A stretch of 37,348 nt of DNA from a virus, in IMG/VR virus record IMGVR_UViG_3300032180_000023, positions 1 to 37,348 of that record; one strand, 5' to 3'. Positions 1 to 37,348 of the stretch are shown one piece after another; the first letter of the stretch is position 1; the number at the start of each line of letters is the position of its first letter. The position numbers were made by a program, and so were the translations under genes. The notes beneath the pieces were generated by a model. The model was not told where the DNA came from, searched no databases, and saw nothing but the letters and a program-made list of their open reading frames with translations.

Positions 1-144
1 AAAATGAGTCGTATGCTACACTAACTGCATCATTTGACACCTTCCAGTGGTTGGATGATATATCACAAGCACAGTGATTGCCCCTTGGTCGTATGCTGAG
101 GGGTTTTTTATTATGAAAGAAGAAAAACGCTACAAGCACGAAAA
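1..144. repeat. Terminal direct repeat, left copy (circular overlap)
   Basis: These 144 bases recur at 37205-37348 with one difference (A127 versus T37331). The simplest reading is that the contig is a circular or terminally redundant genome whose ends overlap, giving a unit length near 37,204 bp. The repeat holds the last bases of the 37211 gene, an intrinsic terminator and the first codons of the 113-307 ORF, so the layout is continuous across the join. A true short terminal repeat on the packaged DNA is also possible and cannot be separated from an assembly overlap here. Confidence 0.9.
81..109 (+). terminator. Intrinsic terminator after the 36933-37211 gene
   Basis: An 8-bp stem (81-88 CCCCTTGG with 96-103 CTGAGGGG, including wobble pairs) encloses a 7-nt loop and is followed by six T (104-109). 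Because the genome is circular this ends the transcript that includes the 37211 gene. The same hairpin also carries the GAGGGG that could serve as ribosome binding site for the ORF starting at 113. A second copy is at 37285-37313. Confidence 0.8.
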
Positions 145-307
145 ACCCTATATTGTCGAAGAGAAAATCGGAGACGGTCATAGTTGGGAAAGATTCATAC
201 AGAATGATTTCGATCAAAGCTGTCATGCTGTGGATGTCATCAATAAGGTCTATAATCCATCGGTTGTCGAAATTGAGCAGGAAGATTGTCCTCCCCTCCA
301 GCCATAG
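113..307 (+). CDS. Hypothetical small protein
   Basis: 64 residues, very charged at the N-terminus (MKEEKRYKHEKPYIVEEK), with no recognised domain. I start it at ATG 113, just after the terminator hairpin whose GAGGGG lies about 9 nt upstream and may act as ribosome binding site. The last 68 bases overlap the 3' end of TerL on the other strand. Composition looks protein-like, but the convergent overlap and the terminator directly upstream leave its expression uncertain. In the right-end repeat codon 6 is AAT (Asn) instead of AAA (Lys). Confidence 0.5.
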   Translation: MKEEKRYKHEKPYIVEEKIGDGHSWERFIQNDFDQSCHAVDVINKVYNPSVVEIEQEDCPPLQP

Positions 308-1532
308 TCTCGGCATATAACCTATCCCAATCATGTGCCTTCATATCGCTGTCTCGATCCTTTTGATACCAATGAGTATAAAGAGCATAACGTAGGGCGT
401 CTAGTGCGTGATCATGCTCTTTCAGTGGTTTGTCAACCCCAGTCTTCTCACTCTTGGCATCCCACACATAGCTCTGGAACTCTTTGATTAAGTGTGAGCA
501 CTTTCTATTGATCTTGACAGTTCCGTTTCCAAGGTATTTGCTCACGAACCTTATACCATCAATGACTTCATTTTCTGCTTCATAGATGTTTTGAAAGCCC
601 GAACGCTGCAACTCAACTTTGAAAGAAGCTGCCGATGGGTCGACATAAATGAATCTAACGTTACGATCCTTGATGAATCGTTTAAGGTCGTCGGCATATT
701 CAGAATCCGTTTTTTGCCGTTGATGCACCTTGCAATCATAATAATACTCATCCTCTACAACTATGTTTGGGAACTTTGAACGGTTGACAGTCAAGAGAAC
801 AAAGGCGCAAGCATTAGTCGTGCCATAATCCACGCCACATATGCTATACTCATAGCTTGGATGGCCAAATTGGATAGTATGTAACTCTTGGGTAAAAAAA
901 TCATAAACCGAACCTTCTGCTTGCACCCATTTGCCTTCGATGAAACGCTGATACCACATGCCTTTGTACTGGCGTGTGAGGTACTCTCGTTCACCTTCCG
1001 TCATCTCTGGGTTGTCATTTAAGTTGAATTGCCAGCTCTTGACGTCTGGGTTGTTATCGATAAACTCGGTTTTGAGCCAGTGAAATGGACTATCTGGGTT
1101 GGTAGTGCCGAAAATGCGGGCGCCACCCATCGCACATCGGCTTATAAGCATCTTGAAAACGGTCTCTGGAAGAATTGTAAGCTCATCGCAATAAGCACCG
1201 GCTAATGTGACACCACGAATCTTTTGTTCTGCTCGTTCATCGGCCGCACCGACTACGTGGATTGTCTTGCCCCATATGTTCATCTCACGCTTACCTGAAT
1301 ACCATTTGACATCAGAGCCGATCATGCGACAAAGCAATGGAAGGATATTTCGTTTGAAAGTGTCATATGTTCTTGTGATGATGGCATATTCGCCTTGAGG
1401 GCCTACTTGAAGCTCTTTTAGGAACCTCCAAAGTGATATATAGGTCTTACCACTACGGACTGAGCCTTCCCAAATATTGATTCGTGCGTCTGATTTGTTA
1501 AGAGAGTCGAGCTGCTTTTGAGAAAACTCCAT
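240..1532 (-). CDS. terL: Terminase large subunit (TerL)
   Basis: 430 residues: the packaging motor ATPase-nuclease that pumps DNA through the portal and cuts it. Walker A is GSVRSGKT (residues 23-30). A Walker B-like Asp-Glu pair is at 116-117 in AGAYCDEL. The C-terminal RNase H-like nuclease shows its acidic residues in GVDYGTT (D235), YVDPSA (D298) and EHDHALDAL (D374/D378). Length and order are typical of PBSX/P22-type TerL. The ATG overlaps the stop of the upstream 66-aa gene (TAATG), so the two are probably coupled. It is read on the opposite strand from the portal and almost all virion genes. Confidence 0.96.
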   Translation of the reverse strand: MEFSQKQLDSLNKSDARINIWEGSVRSGKTYISLWRFLKELQVGPQGEYAIITRTYDTFKRNILPLLCRMIGSDVKWYSGKREMNIWGKTIHVVGAADERAEQKIRGVTLAGAYCDELTILPETVFKMLISRCAMGGARIFGTTNPDSPFHWLKTEFIDNNPDVKSWQFNLNDNPEMTEGEREYLTRQYKGMWYQRFIEGKWVQAEGSVYDFFTQELHTIQFGHPSYEYSICGVDYGTTNACAFVLLTVNRSKFPNIVVEDEYYYDCKVHQRQKTDSEYADDLKRFIKDRNVRFIYVDPSAASFKVELQRSGFQNIYEAENEVIDGIRFVSKYLGNGTVKINRKCSHLIKEFQSYVWDAKSEKTGVDKPLKEHDHALDALRYALYTHWYQKDRDSDMKAHDWDRLYAETMAGGEDNLPAQFRQPMDYRPY

Positions 1533-1836: not shown

Positions 1837-3861
1837 ATGACTCTTTTTCCCCAGTTAACAGATTCATATTATGTCGATAATGACCACAATATTTTGAAGC
1901 GTATGGACTATACCTACGCTAAGAATATCCAGATCAACCAGAGTTTTTGGTCTGAGGCAGATGTGGACGCTCGTTTTCATGCTGGTGATCAGACACTTTA
2001 CAATGACATTTACGGAAACATGCCAGCCTTCAGACGAAGACAATTCAACTTTAATAGGATCCGTCGCGTCATCAATATGATCTCAGGCCATCAGCGCCAA
2101 CATCGGAGGAGCACCGTTGTCACTGCAATTGAGTCTTTAAACGAAAAGACAGCTTCTGAGTTCACAAAACTCCTCTTCCATGTCAACAAGAACGGTCGTA
2201 TATTGGAGACCATTTCTGATGCCTTTGAAGGGGCATGTATTACCGGTATGAACCTCCTTTCAGTCTGGAATGATTATAGATCTGATCCTGTCAATGGCGA
2301 AATAATGGTCGACAACCTATCATACAATGCTTACCTAATCGATCCATACTTCAAGAAGCGTGACCTATCCGATTGTAATGACATTTGGACAAGAAAGTAT
2401 TACAGTAAAGTTCAGGCAAAAAGCCTTCTACCAGGCCGTGAGAAGGACATTGATAGTCTTCCAGCATGGGGAAATAGAGATGGAAAGTTTCAGTTCGAAC
2501 CGGAATCCTACAACTATGGGATGCAAGATCTTCTTATTTTTGACGAGTTCTGGTATCTAGATAGCCGTGAACAAAAAAACCTTGTCGACACACAAACAGG
2601 CGAATGCGTTGAATGGAGAGGACAAGAAGAAGACCTCAAACTCTTCATGCATGCCCATCCCAATATCACGATCGTCACGAGTCAAATCCCCACAGTTAAG
2701 CTTGCCATTGTGGTACAGGGAAAGGTTTTCTACAATGGTCCAAATCCACTGGGGATCGATCGTTACCCTTTTGTCCCCGTCTGGGCCTATTATCACCCAG
2801 AGATTCCATACTTCCCGTGGCGTGCTCAAGGTGTGGTGCGAGGAATCCGTGACGCTCAATATCTCTATAATCGCCAGAAGATTTTAAGTTTGGACCTGTA
2901 TGAAAGTCAAGTTCATTCTGGTTTCATTTTCAAGGAAAATAGCCTTGTTAATCCCAAAGATGTGTTCTTACAAGGTGCTGGAAAAGGGATTGCTTTAAAA
3001 CAAGATGCTGATATTAGTGACATTCAGAAAATACAACCTCCAGGAATTGACCCTACAATTATGCAACTTACAGAAATGTTGGGAAAGGAAATTTCAGAAC
3101 TTTCTGGTGTCAATGAAGAACTCTTAGGAGCTGCTGATGATGATAAAGCCGGCATTCTTTCAATGCTCAGACAAGGCGCCTCTTTAACTACGCTTCAGGG
3201 CCTTTTCGATAGTTTAGATCAGTCTCAAAAGCTCCTAGGAGACATTATGATCGAAGTCATCCAAAATAACTGGACAGTGGGAAAAGTTCAACGTATACTT
3301 GGACATGAGCCTTCACAGCAGTTCTACAACAGAGTTTTTGGTAAATATGATGCAGTCGTTGAAGATGGAATCAACACATCCACTCAAAGGCAGATGCAGT
3401 TTGCCCAGCTATTACACCTCAGAGAGCTCGGCATTCCTGTCCCAACCGACCTACTCATTAACTCTTCGACATTACAGGATAAAGACAAACTTATCGAGTC
3501 TATTCAGCAGGAAAATCAACAGCAGCAGCAAATGCAGCAAGAGCAGCACCAACAACAGATGGCTGTTATGCAAGCTCAGATTCAAGATTTAAATTCAAAA
3601 TCTATGGCAAATGAAGGGTTAGGAATGGAGCGTGCGAGTAGGATCCACGAAAATCGTGCCCTAGCGGTTGAACGTATCGCAGAAGCTGAGCGTAATCGAG
3701 ATGCGGCTGCTCTGGACAAGGTACGTGCGGCAAAAGAGCTTACAGACATAGACCTCAACCAGATTGAGCGTGCTATGAACATCATACGTATGCTCAAAGA
3801 AGAAGACATCCAACAATCCCAAAAAGTAGCTCAACAACAAATGTCAAATACAGGTACTTGA
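1837..3861 (+). CDS. Portal protein, P22 type
   Basis: 674 residues. The dodecameric ring at the head vertex, docking TerL and then the tail. The sequence matches the P22-like portal pattern: an N-terminal segment rich in basic and aromatic residues (about 50-110, with FRRRQFNFNRIRRVINMISGH), a central region with GIDRYPFVPVWAYYHPE (about 300), and RDAQYLYNRQKIL (about 345). The C-terminal tail after residue 545 is Gln-rich and coiled-coil-like, resembling the P22 barrel region. Length fits the family. ATG 1837 has only a short AGGTG near it, and ATG at residue 23 is an alternative. Confidence 0.93.
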   Translation: MTLFPQLTDSYYVDNDHNILKRMDYTYAKNIQINQSFWSEADVDARFHAGDQTLYNDIYGNMPAFRRRQFNFNRIRRVINMISGHQRQHRRSTVVTAIESLNEKTASEFTKLLFHVNKNGRILETISDAFEGACITGMNLLSVWNDYRSDPVNGEIMVDNLSYNAYLIDPYFKKRDLSDCNDIWTRKYYSKVQAKSLLPGREKDIDSLPAWGNRDGKFQFEPESYNYGMQDLLIFDEFWYLDSREQKNLVDTQTGECVEWRGQEEDLKLFMHAHPNITIVTSQIPTVKLAIVVQGKVFYNGPNPLGIDRYPFVPVWAYYHPEIPYFPWRAQGVVRGIRDAQYLYNRQKILSLDLYESQVHSGFIFKENSLVNPKDVFLQGAGKGIALKQDADISDIQKIQPPGIDPTIMQLTEMLGKEISELSGVNEELLGAADDDKAGILSMLRQGASLTTLQGLFDSLDQSQKLLGDIMIEVIQNNWTVGKVQRILGHEPSQQFYNRVFGKYDAVVEDGINTSTQRQMQFAQLLHLRELGIPVPTDLLINSSTLQDKDKLIESIQQENQQQQQMQQEQHQQQMAVMQAQIQDLNSKSMANEGLGMERASRIHENRALAVERIAEAERNRDAAALDKVRAAKELTDIDLNQIERAMNIIRMLKEEDIQQSQKVAQQQMSNTGT

Positions 3862-36125: not shown

Positions 36126-36199
36126 TTTTTCCTTCCCTTTTTGTTTTGGCGCCCCACCTCCTTGAGGGACTTGTACACATAGTACGCCAAGGCCCCGAA

Positions 36200-36228
36200 T
36201 TTACACAAGAGAAAAAATGCAGTATTTG
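36200..36228 (+). promoter_or_regulatory. Candidate promoter for TerS and the tRNA-like genes
   Basis: TTTACA (36200-36205) and TATTTG (36223-36228) with a 17-bp spacer, 53 bp before ATG 36281 in the region between the divergent RHH and TerS genes. The -10 is a weak match. Confidence 0.35.
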
Positions 36229-36280
36229 CAGAAAAAGAATTCCTTGTCATATGGTGAAGAAAAAAAGAGGACTCAAACTC

Positions 36281-36733
36281 ATGCCAAAGGGCAAATTGAC
36301 ACGCAATGAAAAGATTGCAAAAACAATGATAGGCAATCAGAATGCAAGAAAGCTCCACGATCCTGGCGTCAAGCAAGAAGCCTTCGAAAAATATCTAGCT
36401 CATCTACGTTCCGGTATGCCTAAAGACGCCTTTGCTTATGAAACAGAAGATGCATGTGTTAATCACCAAATGATAGATAAAATGATGGCCGATAACCCGT
36501 CTGAATTTCCACCACATAAGAGAGCCGCCGCTGAAAACGAACGCTACAACAACTGGCTAAATCGTGGCCTAAACATGATGGATGGCAAGGTTCCGCATTG
36601 CGAACCAGCCATCTACCAAATGATGATGCGTAACATGTTCAAGTGGGATCGAAAAGAAGAAGAAGCGCCCTCAAACCACTTTGTGGATGCACAGCGCATT
36701 TTTGTTGAGGCAGAAAAAAAGGGAAAAGCGTAG
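36281..36733 (+). CDS. Terminase small subunit-like protein
   Basis: 150 residues from ATG 36281, with AAGAGGA about 9 nt upstream; a longer reading from 36146 lacks a site. Basic N-terminus (MPKGKLTRNEKIAKTMIGNQ), a helical middle suited to helix-turn-helix and oligomerisation (AFEKYLAHLRSGMPKDAFAY), and a C-terminal PHCEPAIYQMMMRNMFKWDR that resembles the NMKNRFGW-type end of phage TerS. TerS recognises the packaging site and activates TerL. Assignment is by pattern; the distance and opposite strand relative to TerL are unusual. Confidence 0.7.
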   Translation: MPKGKLTRNEKIAKTMIGNQNARKLHDPGVKQEAFEKYLAHLRSGMPKDAFAYETEDACVNHQMIDKMMADNPSEFPPHKRAAAENERYNNWLNRGLNMMDGKVPHCEPAIYQMMMRNMFKWDRKEEEAPSNHFVDAQRIFVEAEKKGKA

Positions 36734-36741
36734 AATAATTG

Positions 36742-36834
36742 TCGCGGTCTAAGCTCAAGTAGTAGGAGCACACGCTTGAAAATTCACACAAGTACCTGCG
36801 TGAGGTTATTGGCGCAACTCCAATAGACCGCGAA
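36742..36834 (+). tRNA. tRNA-like RNA with long variable arm, non-canonical
   Basis: Cloverleaf by eye: 9-bp acceptor TCGCGGTCT (36742-36750) with AGACCGCGA (36825-36833); D stem GCTC/GAGC (36753-36756, 36766-36769); anticodon stem GCTTG/CAAGT (36774-36778, 36789-36793) around a 10-nt loop AAAATTCACA; variable arm ACCT-GCGTG-AGGT (36794-36806); T stem ATTGG/CCAAT (36808-36812, 36820-36824) with loop CGCAACT. Acceptor is two pairs longer, and the anticodon loop three bases longer, than standard, so no amino acid is assigned. 3' CCA is not encoded. Confidence 0.55.
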
Positions 36835-36838
36835 TGTT

Positions 36839-36915
36839 GAGTAACCTTAGTTCAGTAAGTAGAGCCTTGGCCTTTATTATCCAAGAGACATAGGTGCAAT
36901 TCCTATAGGTTACTC
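36839..36915 (+). tRNA. tRNA-like RNA, short variable loop, non-canonical
   Basis: Five bases after the first tRNA-like RNA. 9-bp acceptor GAGTAACCT (36839-36847) with AGGTTACTC (36907-36915); canonical D arm GTTC-AGTAAGTA-GAGC (36850-36865); anticodon stem CTTGG/CCAAG (36866-36870, 36881-36885) around the 10-nt loop CCTTTATTAT; T stem ATAGG/CCTAT (36890-36894, 36902-36906) with loop TGCAATT. Conserved G19 and C56 equivalents are kept; the G18 and T55 positions are changed. The loop contains TTT and TTA, but the anticodon cannot be fixed with 10 loop bases. Confidence 0.6.
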
Positions 36916-36932
36916 TTTTTATGGAGAACTCA

Positions 36933-37211
36933 ATGACATACCCCTCAGACGATCAAAAGCCTCTTAACATGCTTCTGAAGGGACATCAAGCTTTGTCTGA
37001 CATAAATCATTATGTTGAATTCCTAAACGAAAGCTCAGATATCGTCACCTATTACGATGAAAGAAGATATGCACCAAATAAGGTCTTCAAGGATATTGTA
37101 TTAAGTGATGGGAAGATTATACAAGCCCCTGTCTACAAGAAGAGAGCTGTATACTATATCGACCTCAAATATGCTTTGCCTCCTACGATGAAATGTGATG
37201 ATAAAAAATGA
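36933..37211 (+). CDS. Hypothetical protein, 92 aa
   Basis: 92 residues from ATG 36933 (GGAG 7 nt upstream, itself inside an earlier in-frame ATG at 36921): MTYPSDDQKPLNMLLKGHQA, YVEFLNESSDIVTYYDERRY, KRAVYYIDLKYALPPTM. Mixed alpha-beta, no family recognised. Last gene before the terminator and the circular junction; its final 7 bases are within the terminal repeat. Confidence 0.75.
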   Translation: MTYPSDDQKPLNMLLKGHQALSDINHYVEFLNESSDIVTYYDERRYAPNKVFKDIVLSDGKIIQAPVYKKRAVYYIDLKYALPPTMKCDDKK

Positions 37212-37348
37212 GTCGTATGCTACACTAACTGCATCATTTGACACCTTCCAGTGGTTGGATGATATATCACAAGCACAGTGATTGCCCCTTGGTCGTATGC
37301 TGAGGGGTTTTTTATTATGAAAGAAGAAAATCGCTACAAGCACGAAAA
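37205..37348. repeat. Terminal direct repeat, right copy (circular overlap)
   Basis: Second copy of bases 1-144, differing only at T37331 (A127). It includes a second copy of the terminator (stem 37285-37292 with 37300-37307) and the first codons of the 113-307 ORF from ATG 37317, cut off by the end of the window. Confidence 0.9.

What the first reader, a model, noticed from the sequence alone, without database searches (positions are those of the whole stretch)
36742..36915. Tandem tRNA-like RNAs with 9-bp acceptors and 10-nt anticodon loops
Both elements share the same deviation: acceptor two pairs too long, 5-bp T stem, and an anticodon loop of 10 instead of 7. One has a class II variable arm, the other a short one. 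Two different tRNA bodies carrying the same expansion argues for selection, not decay. Possible roles: decoys or nuclease-resistant tRNAs against host anticodon nucleases, frameshift decoders, or structured RNAs copied from tRNAs.
Basis: partly seen in the sequence, partly recalled or inferred. Interest (0 to 1): 0.75.

Follow-up and report, generated by a model that had tools for sequence, protein, structure and literature searches.

The report
Viral tRNA-like RNAs that cannot decode
Two small RNAs in this virus keep the body of a transfer RNA but have an abnormal decoding arm; they belong to a previously unnoticed, widespread family of viral tRNA look-alikes, often placed right after the gene for the DNA-packaging portal, whose job is probably not to read codons.

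Summary
Two adjacent tRNA-like RNAs sit at 36744-36832 (W1) and 36841-36914 (W2) of a complete 37.2-kb phage genome. A covariance model built only from other viruses finds both (52.7 and 46.5 bits, E about 1e-14 and 1e-12) and nothing else in the window. W1 has no class II arm: it has a 5-bp anticodon stem, a 22-nt loop and a 5-nt variable loop. W2 has 10 unpaired nt. The 9-bp acceptors are 7-bp acceptors plus flanking pairs, not a family trait.

Blind pattern scans of IMG/VR found about 40 contigs with the same kind of RNA: normal acceptor, D and T arms, A18 facing G55 instead of G18-Psi55, anticodon stems kept by compensatory changes, and anticodon loops of 9-36 nt, mostly without U33. In 11 loci it lies 197-519 nt after the stop of a homologous portal gene, same strand. 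Bodies stay alike among relatives while the anticodon arm is replaced.

So these are non-decoding tRNA-like RNAs derived from phage tRNAs, most likely cut out of mRNA by RNase P/Z and acting as processing signals and/or stable decoys. That function is inferred, not shown.

The parts
36744..36832 (+). W1, tRNA-like RNA: acceptor 36744-36750/36825-36831, D stem 36753-36756/36766-36769, anticodon stem 36771-36775/36798-36802, 22-nt loop 36776-36797, variable AGGTT 36803-36807, T arm 36808-36824 with loop CGCAACT (G55, C56, A58)
   Evidence: held-out covariance model R2, 52.7 bits, E 1.8e-14; cloverleaf scan above all shuffles
36841..36914 (+). W2, tRNA-like RNA: acceptor GTAACCT/AGGTTAC, D arm with AGTAAGTA loop (A18 G19), anticodon stem CTTGG/CCAAG with 10 unpaired nt (or 8-nt loop above a C.U mismatch), T loop TGCAATT (G55)
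   Evidence: Rfam tRNA 44.1 bits; held-out model 46.5 bits, E 1.6e-12; MFE fold is the cloverleaf
36742..36743 (+). two flanking bases that pair with 36832-36833 and made the acceptor of W1 look 9 bp long
   Evidence: sequence; not conserved in the family
36146..36733 (+). upstream ORF, 195 aa, no known family; its stop lies 10 nt before W1
   Evidence: same tight spacing in 6 relatives
36921..37211 (+). downstream ORF, 96 aa (first ATG 36921; ATG 36933 has a GGAG in front), starting 6-18 nt after W2, no known family
37284..37308 (+). terminator-like hairpin plus T run after the downstream ORF, so ORF-W1-W2-ORF reads as one transcription unit (inferred)
   Evidence: one found, shuffles mean 1.1: weak
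1837..3861 (+). portal protein, 674 aa, the gene whose relatives carry the related RNAs nearby; 2.3 kb after W1 on the circular genome
   Evidence: phrog_156 E 7.6e-76

Best explanation
W1 and W2 are members of a family of phage-encoded tRNA-like RNAs derived from ordinary phage tRNA genes. They keep the L-shaped body (7-bp acceptor, 5-bp T arm, D arm, G19-C56 elbow) and have lost what decoding needs (a 7-nt loop with U33, usually an encoded CCA, Psi55). Shown here: membership in the family, the elbow swap A18/G55, conserved pairing of an anticodon arm whose length and sequence are free, loss of U33, and the repeated place beside the portal gene on the coding strand. Inferred: they are transcribed within the mRNA of the neighbouring genes, recognised as pre-tRNA by host RNase P (5') and RNase Z or exonucleases (3'), and excised. 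The useful product is then the cut itself (separating or trimming the flanking messages, for example after the portal gene) and/or the stable tRNA-like RNA released. The anticodon arm is needed only as a closed helix, so its loop drifts or can display other sequence.
For: Held-out model finds W1 and W2. Blind scan for the T-loop/D-arm pattern with an enlarged anticodon region gave 46 contigs, about 40 with complementary acceptor and T stems, about 31 of these with an anticodon stem in the canonical register although pairing was not asked for. 97.6% of cells pair, covariation score 0.841 against 0.20 in shuffles, all five anticodon-stem pairs change on both sides. A18 in 31/38 G55 RNAs against 0/59 with U55; expanded, stem-supported loops in 8/33 against 0/57. 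U33-type signature lost in 30/32. 11 loci have the RNA 197-519 nt after the portal stop, same strand. Body 84-98% identical in close relatives where anticodon arm is 32-56% and flanks often under 60%. U at -1 in 24/37, a base that RNase P favours (preference from own knowledge). Starts 6-10 nt after a stop codon in 7 of 21 (and the window). RNase P and RNase Z grip the elbow through G19-C56, which is kept (PMC4810234).
Against: No transcript, processing or charging data exist here. Most portal relatives have no detectable such RNA, so it is dispensable. In the window the pair lies 2.3 kb before the portal, not after it, and has no close homologues. W1 and W2 do not have U at -1. W2 may be nearer to a decoding tRNA (8-nt loop with U33, anticodon UUA) than to the rest. 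The processing role does not explain the A18/G55 swap, which is also found in viral tRNAs with normal anticodons.
Confidence: 0.5

Rival explanations
1. Stable tRNA-like decoy: the RNA itself is the product and occupies host factors that handle tRNA (tRNA-targeting defence nucleases or toxins, aminoacyl-tRNA users, elbow-binding enzymes), with an anticodon arm that anticodon nucleases cannot cut.
For: Anticodon arm is replaced while the body is kept, as an arms race would do; phage tRNAs with altered anticodon loops are known to escape anticodon nucleases (PMC10264068) and phage tRNAs evade retron-type defence (PMC11555353, title and abstract only).
Against: Variation of the arm is equally expected under no constraint; no defence gene or target tested; position beside the portal and close packing after stop codons are not explained.
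Confidence: 0.22
2. Decaying phage tRNA genes: remnants of tRNAs in a tRNA-prone place beside the portal, drifting after loss of use.
For: Normal tRNAs also occur close to the portal gene in several relatives (L008, L010, L046, L057, L060, L072, L076); loops differ wildly in length and sequence; most relatives lack the RNA.
Against: Anticodon-stem pairs co-vary at all five positions, acceptor and T stems are intact in about 40 contigs, the body outlives its flanks, and A18/G55 change together. Decay alone does not do this.
Confidence: 0.13
3. Intron-containing decoding tRNAs: the extra nucleotides of the anticodon loop are removed by splicing and a normal 7-nt loop remains.
For: The first seven loop bases of W1, TTGAAAA, are a perfect Phe(GAA) anticodon loop, leaving 15 nt after it; ARAGORN's intron option finds W2 and L008/L010.
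Against: Across the family U33 and the Y32-U33-R37 signature are at chance level (2/32), so no constant exon loop exists; inserts range from 2 to about 29 nt; too short for group I introns; no ligase or splicing endonuclease was seen among the 19 window proteins scanned against Pfam. W1 on its own is not excluded.
Confidence: 0.06
4. Unusual decoders (frameshift suppressors, or an ochre-reading tRNA in the case of W2).
For: W2 in the canonical register has loop CTTTATTA with U33 and UUA at 34-36; true 8-nt loops occur in related viral tRNAs (L067, L173, L193).
Against: Loops of 11-36 nt cannot be extended anticodons; U33 lost in most members; the window's large genes read through normally under table 11.
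Confidence: 0.06
5. Antisense RNA on a tRNA scaffold: the loop pairs with an mRNA.
For: tRNA scaffolds do carry foreign RNA in the anticodon loop in engineered systems (own knowledge).
Against: Longest complement of each loop in its own contig is no longer than for shuffled loops in 31 of 32 cases; host targets not tested.
Confidence: 0.03

Closest known systems
Phage tRNAs with altered anticodon loops (van den Berg et al. 2023, PMC10264068)
   Same: phage-encoded, tRNA body, changes centred on the anticodon loop
   Different: those tRNAs keep a decoding anticodon loop with point changes; here loops are 9-36 nt, without U33, and the elbow is A18/G55
mascRNA and menRNA, tRNA mimics that direct 3'-end formation of long RNAs by RNase P (PMC11693755, listed)
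   Same: tRNA-like fold used as a processing signal, anticodon not needed
   Different: mammalian nuclear RNAs; here bacterial-virus RNAs between phage genes; processing not shown here
Viral tRNA-like structures of RNA viruses (TYMV and others; PMC4810234)
   Same: keep the D/T elbow and change other parts
   Different: those lie at genome 3' ends and use pseudoknots; these keep a true cloverleaf
Canonical tRNA (Rfam RF00005)
   Same: acceptor, D arm, anticodon stem, variable AGGTY, T arm; W2 passes the Rfam threshold
   Different: anticodon loop not 7 nt, U33 and Psi55 lost, usually no CCA in the gene
Phage packaging RNA (pRNA of phi29-like phages, own knowledge)
   Same: structured RNA encoded by a phage, and here often next to the portal gene
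   Different: no tRNA fold in pRNA; no test of binding to portal done here

Membership tests
canonical decoding tRNA | cloverleaf with 7-bp acceptor, D arm, 5-bp anticodon stem, 5-bp T arm | tested here: met
canonical decoding tRNA | 7-nt anticodon loop with U33 | tested here: not met
   W1 22 nt; W2 10 unpaired nt, or 8 nt with U33 in another register; family 2/32 with Y32-U33-R37
canonical decoding tRNA | U55 (Psi55) with G18 | tested here: not met
   W1 CGCAACT, W2 TGCAATT; A18 in both
canonical decoding tRNA | aminoacylation and ribosome use | not testable with these tools
   needs tRNA-seq or charging assay
class II tRNA (Leu, Ser, Tyr) | long variable arm | tested here: not met
   variable region is AGGTT in W1 and AGAC in W2
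intron-containing tRNA | exon loop 32-38 constant with insertion at 37/38 | tested here: not met
   U33/R37 at chance level across the family; inconclusive for W1 alone
tmRNA | tRNA-like domain plus tag-peptide reading frame | tested here: not met
   ARAGORN and Rfam find none
viral A18/G55 tRNA-like RNA family described here | YGCAA T loop, A18-G19, AGCTC-GAGC D arm, AGGTY, free anticodon arm | tested here: met
   held-out model; W2 deviates in the D stem (GTTC) and variable loop (AGAC)
RNase P-processed tRNA mimic | cleavage at the 5' end of the acceptor by RNase P | not testable with these tools
   only indirect signs: G19-C56 and 12-bp stack kept, U at -1 in 24/37

The most novel reading that the evidence does not exclude
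A new class of virus-specific small RNA: non-decoding tRNA mimics with a re-engineered elbow (A18/G55) and a freely exchangeable anticodon arm, kept beside the portal gene of a wide group of phages as an RNase P-dependent operon punctuation signal or as an anti-defence decoy.
Probability: 0.5. Interest if true: 0.85.

Novelty: new variant of a known kind. Interest (0 to 1): 0.7.

Why it matters
Phage tRNAs are usually counted as codon helpers or replacements for host tRNAs cut by defence systems. A family in which the decoding end has been given up while the body is kept shows that phages also use the tRNA shape for something else. It gives a direct test of whether RNase P cuts viral messages, and warns that tRNA callers either miss these RNAs or give them false anticodons (tRNA-Ser, tRNA-???). 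The paired change A18/G55 breaks a pair described as involving the universally conserved Psi55 (PMC4810234), which makes a natural set for studying elbow recognition.

Tried and rejected
No DNA relatives of the window in 50,697 phage records; the two flanking ORFs have no relatives in viral contigs and no family. Two relatives' RNAs against phage records matched only short parts of ordinary U55 tRNAs. First reading of L008/L010 (stem GTTGC/GTAAT) was dropped for GTTGC/GCGAT because L010 changes both G.U pairs to Watson-Crick pairs. 9-bp acceptor as a shared design: at chance level in 37 members. Antisense loops: no signal. Class II arm and canonical introns: rejected above. Single orthologous position for the whole family: rejected, since the RNA lies after the portal in 11 loci, before it in others and on the other strand in L024; the portal tree needs 3 changes of the 'downstream' label, fewer than shuffles. 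Reduced versions of the element near the portal in L073 and L047 are suggestive only; their folds are not clearly better than shuffles. One request with a wrong region length and one with wrong protein coordinates failed and gave no data.

Full report
WHERE IT IS. The window is a virus record whose two ends share a 144-bp direct repeat with one mismatch, so it is very likely a complete circular or circularly assembled genome of about 37.2 kb, 40% G+C. It has a portal protein (1837-3861, phrog_156), a large terminase (240-1532, minus strand), RecT, a YqaJ-like exonuclease, a DnaD-like loader and a helicase. It has no DNA relative among 50,697 phage records.

THE OBSERVATION. Two tRNA-like elements follow each other on the + strand, 10 nt after the stop of a 195-aa ORF and 6-18 nt before the start of a 96-aa ORF. 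W2 (36841-36914) is a significant Rfam tRNA match, 44.1 bits; W1 (36744-36832) is not matched even at E 10. ARAGORN finds neither by default. W1 reads as acceptor 7 bp, D arm 4 bp, one spacer, anticodon stem CACGC/GCGTG, a 22-nt loop, variable loop AGGTT, T arm 5 bp with loop CGCAACT. In W2 the stem CTTGG/CCAAG encloses 10 nt; in the register that leaves one spacer base and five variable bases it is an 8-nt loop above a C.U mismatch. The minimum-energy fold of W2 is the cloverleaf; that of W1 alone is not, so homology carries W1.

RELATIVES FOUND THROUGH THE PORTAL. The portal protein led to 37 and then 51 viral loci (16-61% and up to 67% identity) and two bacterial contigs titled Acidobacteria and Deltaproteobacteria. 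A cloverleaf scan that leaves the anticodon loop free (7-45 nt) was run on 1.3 Mb of these records and on ten shuffles; shuffles reach the 27s. Above that, besides normal tRNAs, stood W1 (loop 22), W2, L024 (33), L074 (9), L008 and L010 (32). W1, W2, L024 and L074 share a T loop YGCAANT, that is G at position 55 where tRNAs have U (Psi); the D loops of W1 and W2 have A18-G19 in place of G18-G19.

A BLIND TEST. Scanning 2.9 million viral contigs for a G55 T loop with a D arm and AGGTY at the right places (no portal involved) gave 44 contigs; the same pattern with U55 was the control. G55 RNAs: A18 in 31 of 38, against 0 of 59 for U55 (p about 6e-19); stem-supported loops other than 7 nt in 8 of 33 against 0 of 57 (p 2e-4). 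A second scan that required an enlarged anticodon region gave 46 contigs, about 40 with complementary acceptor and T stems, although neither complementarity was asked for, and about 31 with an anticodon stem in the canonical register. The others (L343, L348, L354, L166, L320) have a long hairpin in its place. On 26 members 97.6% of cells pair; the covariation score is 0.841 against 0.20 in shuffles and at most 0.24 in slid controls; acceptor, anticodon and T stems vary on both sides at every pair. Because some rows were picked by the scan, the acceptor and T counts lean towards pairing; the anticodon stem was not selected in the pattern-found rows. A model built without the window's sequences finds W1 and W2 at E 1.8e-14 and 1.6e-12 and nothing else in the window.

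NOT DECODERS. In 24 G55 RNAs with 7-nt loops the signature Y32-U33-R37 is present in 22. In 32 expanded loops it is present in 2, which is what chance gives (p 3e-11). This argues against decoding and against canonical 37/38 introns for the family. W1 is one of the two (TTGAAAA), so W1 alone is not excluded. CCA is encoded in 6 of 37. Loops show no complementarity to their own contig beyond shuffles.

PLACE. In 11 loci the RNA starts 197-519 nt after the portal stop, on the same strand; in L008/L010 about 300 nt before it, in the window 2.3 kb, in L341 2.8 kb and in L166/L359 about 6 kb before it; in L024 it is on the other strand. Ordinary tRNAs occur in the same neighbourhood in other relatives. 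On the portal tree one clade of seven rows all has the RNA downstream of the portal. Within that group bodies are about 73-98% identical (84-98% for most pairs), anticodon arms 21-56%, and the genes that follow differ. In 7 of 21 cases the RNA begins 6-10 nt after a stop codon (plus the window).

HOW IT MAY WORK. What is kept is what RNase P and RNase Z use: the stack of acceptor and T stem and the G19-C56 face of the elbow (PMC4810234). What is lost is what the ribosome uses. U precedes the acceptor in 24 of 37, a base that RNase P favours (own knowledge), though not in W1 or W2. The best-supported reading is therefore a tRNA-like RNA excised from the phage message, the cut and/or the stable product being the useful thing. 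A decoy role against tRNA-targeting host systems is the main rival. None of this has been shown by experiment.

LIMITS. The contigs are environmental; hosts are unknown; several hits are near-copies of one another, so p-values are optimistic; the strict patterns miss members and the loop counts depend on them. The search of one cellular phylum (79 genomes, none; the U55 pattern in 13 of 21) is a thin test of virus specificity. The literature search covered open-access papers only and found no description of such a family.

Noticed in passing
L156-L199: Viral tRNAs with normal 7-nt loops and anticodons also carry A18/G55 in place of G18/Psi55, some in contigs over 200 kb; a departure from a position described as universal.
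   Followed up: partly
L067 5845-5919, L173 2141-2195, L193 12204-12258: Viral tRNAs with 8-nt anticodon loops (candidate +1 or four-base decoders).
   Followed up: no
L057 130-1495: Array of 12 tRNA genes directly upstream of the portal gene; in this phage group the portal flank seems to be a tRNA hot spot.
   Followed up: partly
L177, L328, L333, L340, L351, L355 just after the element: The genes that follow the tRNA-like RNA differ between close relatives (a ParA-like start GGIKGGSGKTT in L177/L328, minus-strand genes in L333/L340/L355, a tRNA-Asp in L351): a place of gene exchange.
   Followed up: partly
L047 8821-8866: Apparent minimal version: acceptor GGCATAT/ATATGTC and the family's T arm with only 14 nt between them, in a bacterial metagenome contig that also has a portal relative.
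   Followed up: partly
L320 5814-6611, L347 48-847, L166 7519-7970: Clusters of two or three tRNA-like RNAs of different kinds side by side, as in the window.
   Followed up: partly
window 1-144 and 37205-37348: 144-bp terminal direct repeat with one mismatch: the record is most likely a complete genome.
   Followed up: yes
window 240-1532: Large terminase is on the minus strand, opposite to the portal gene next to it.
   Followed up: no
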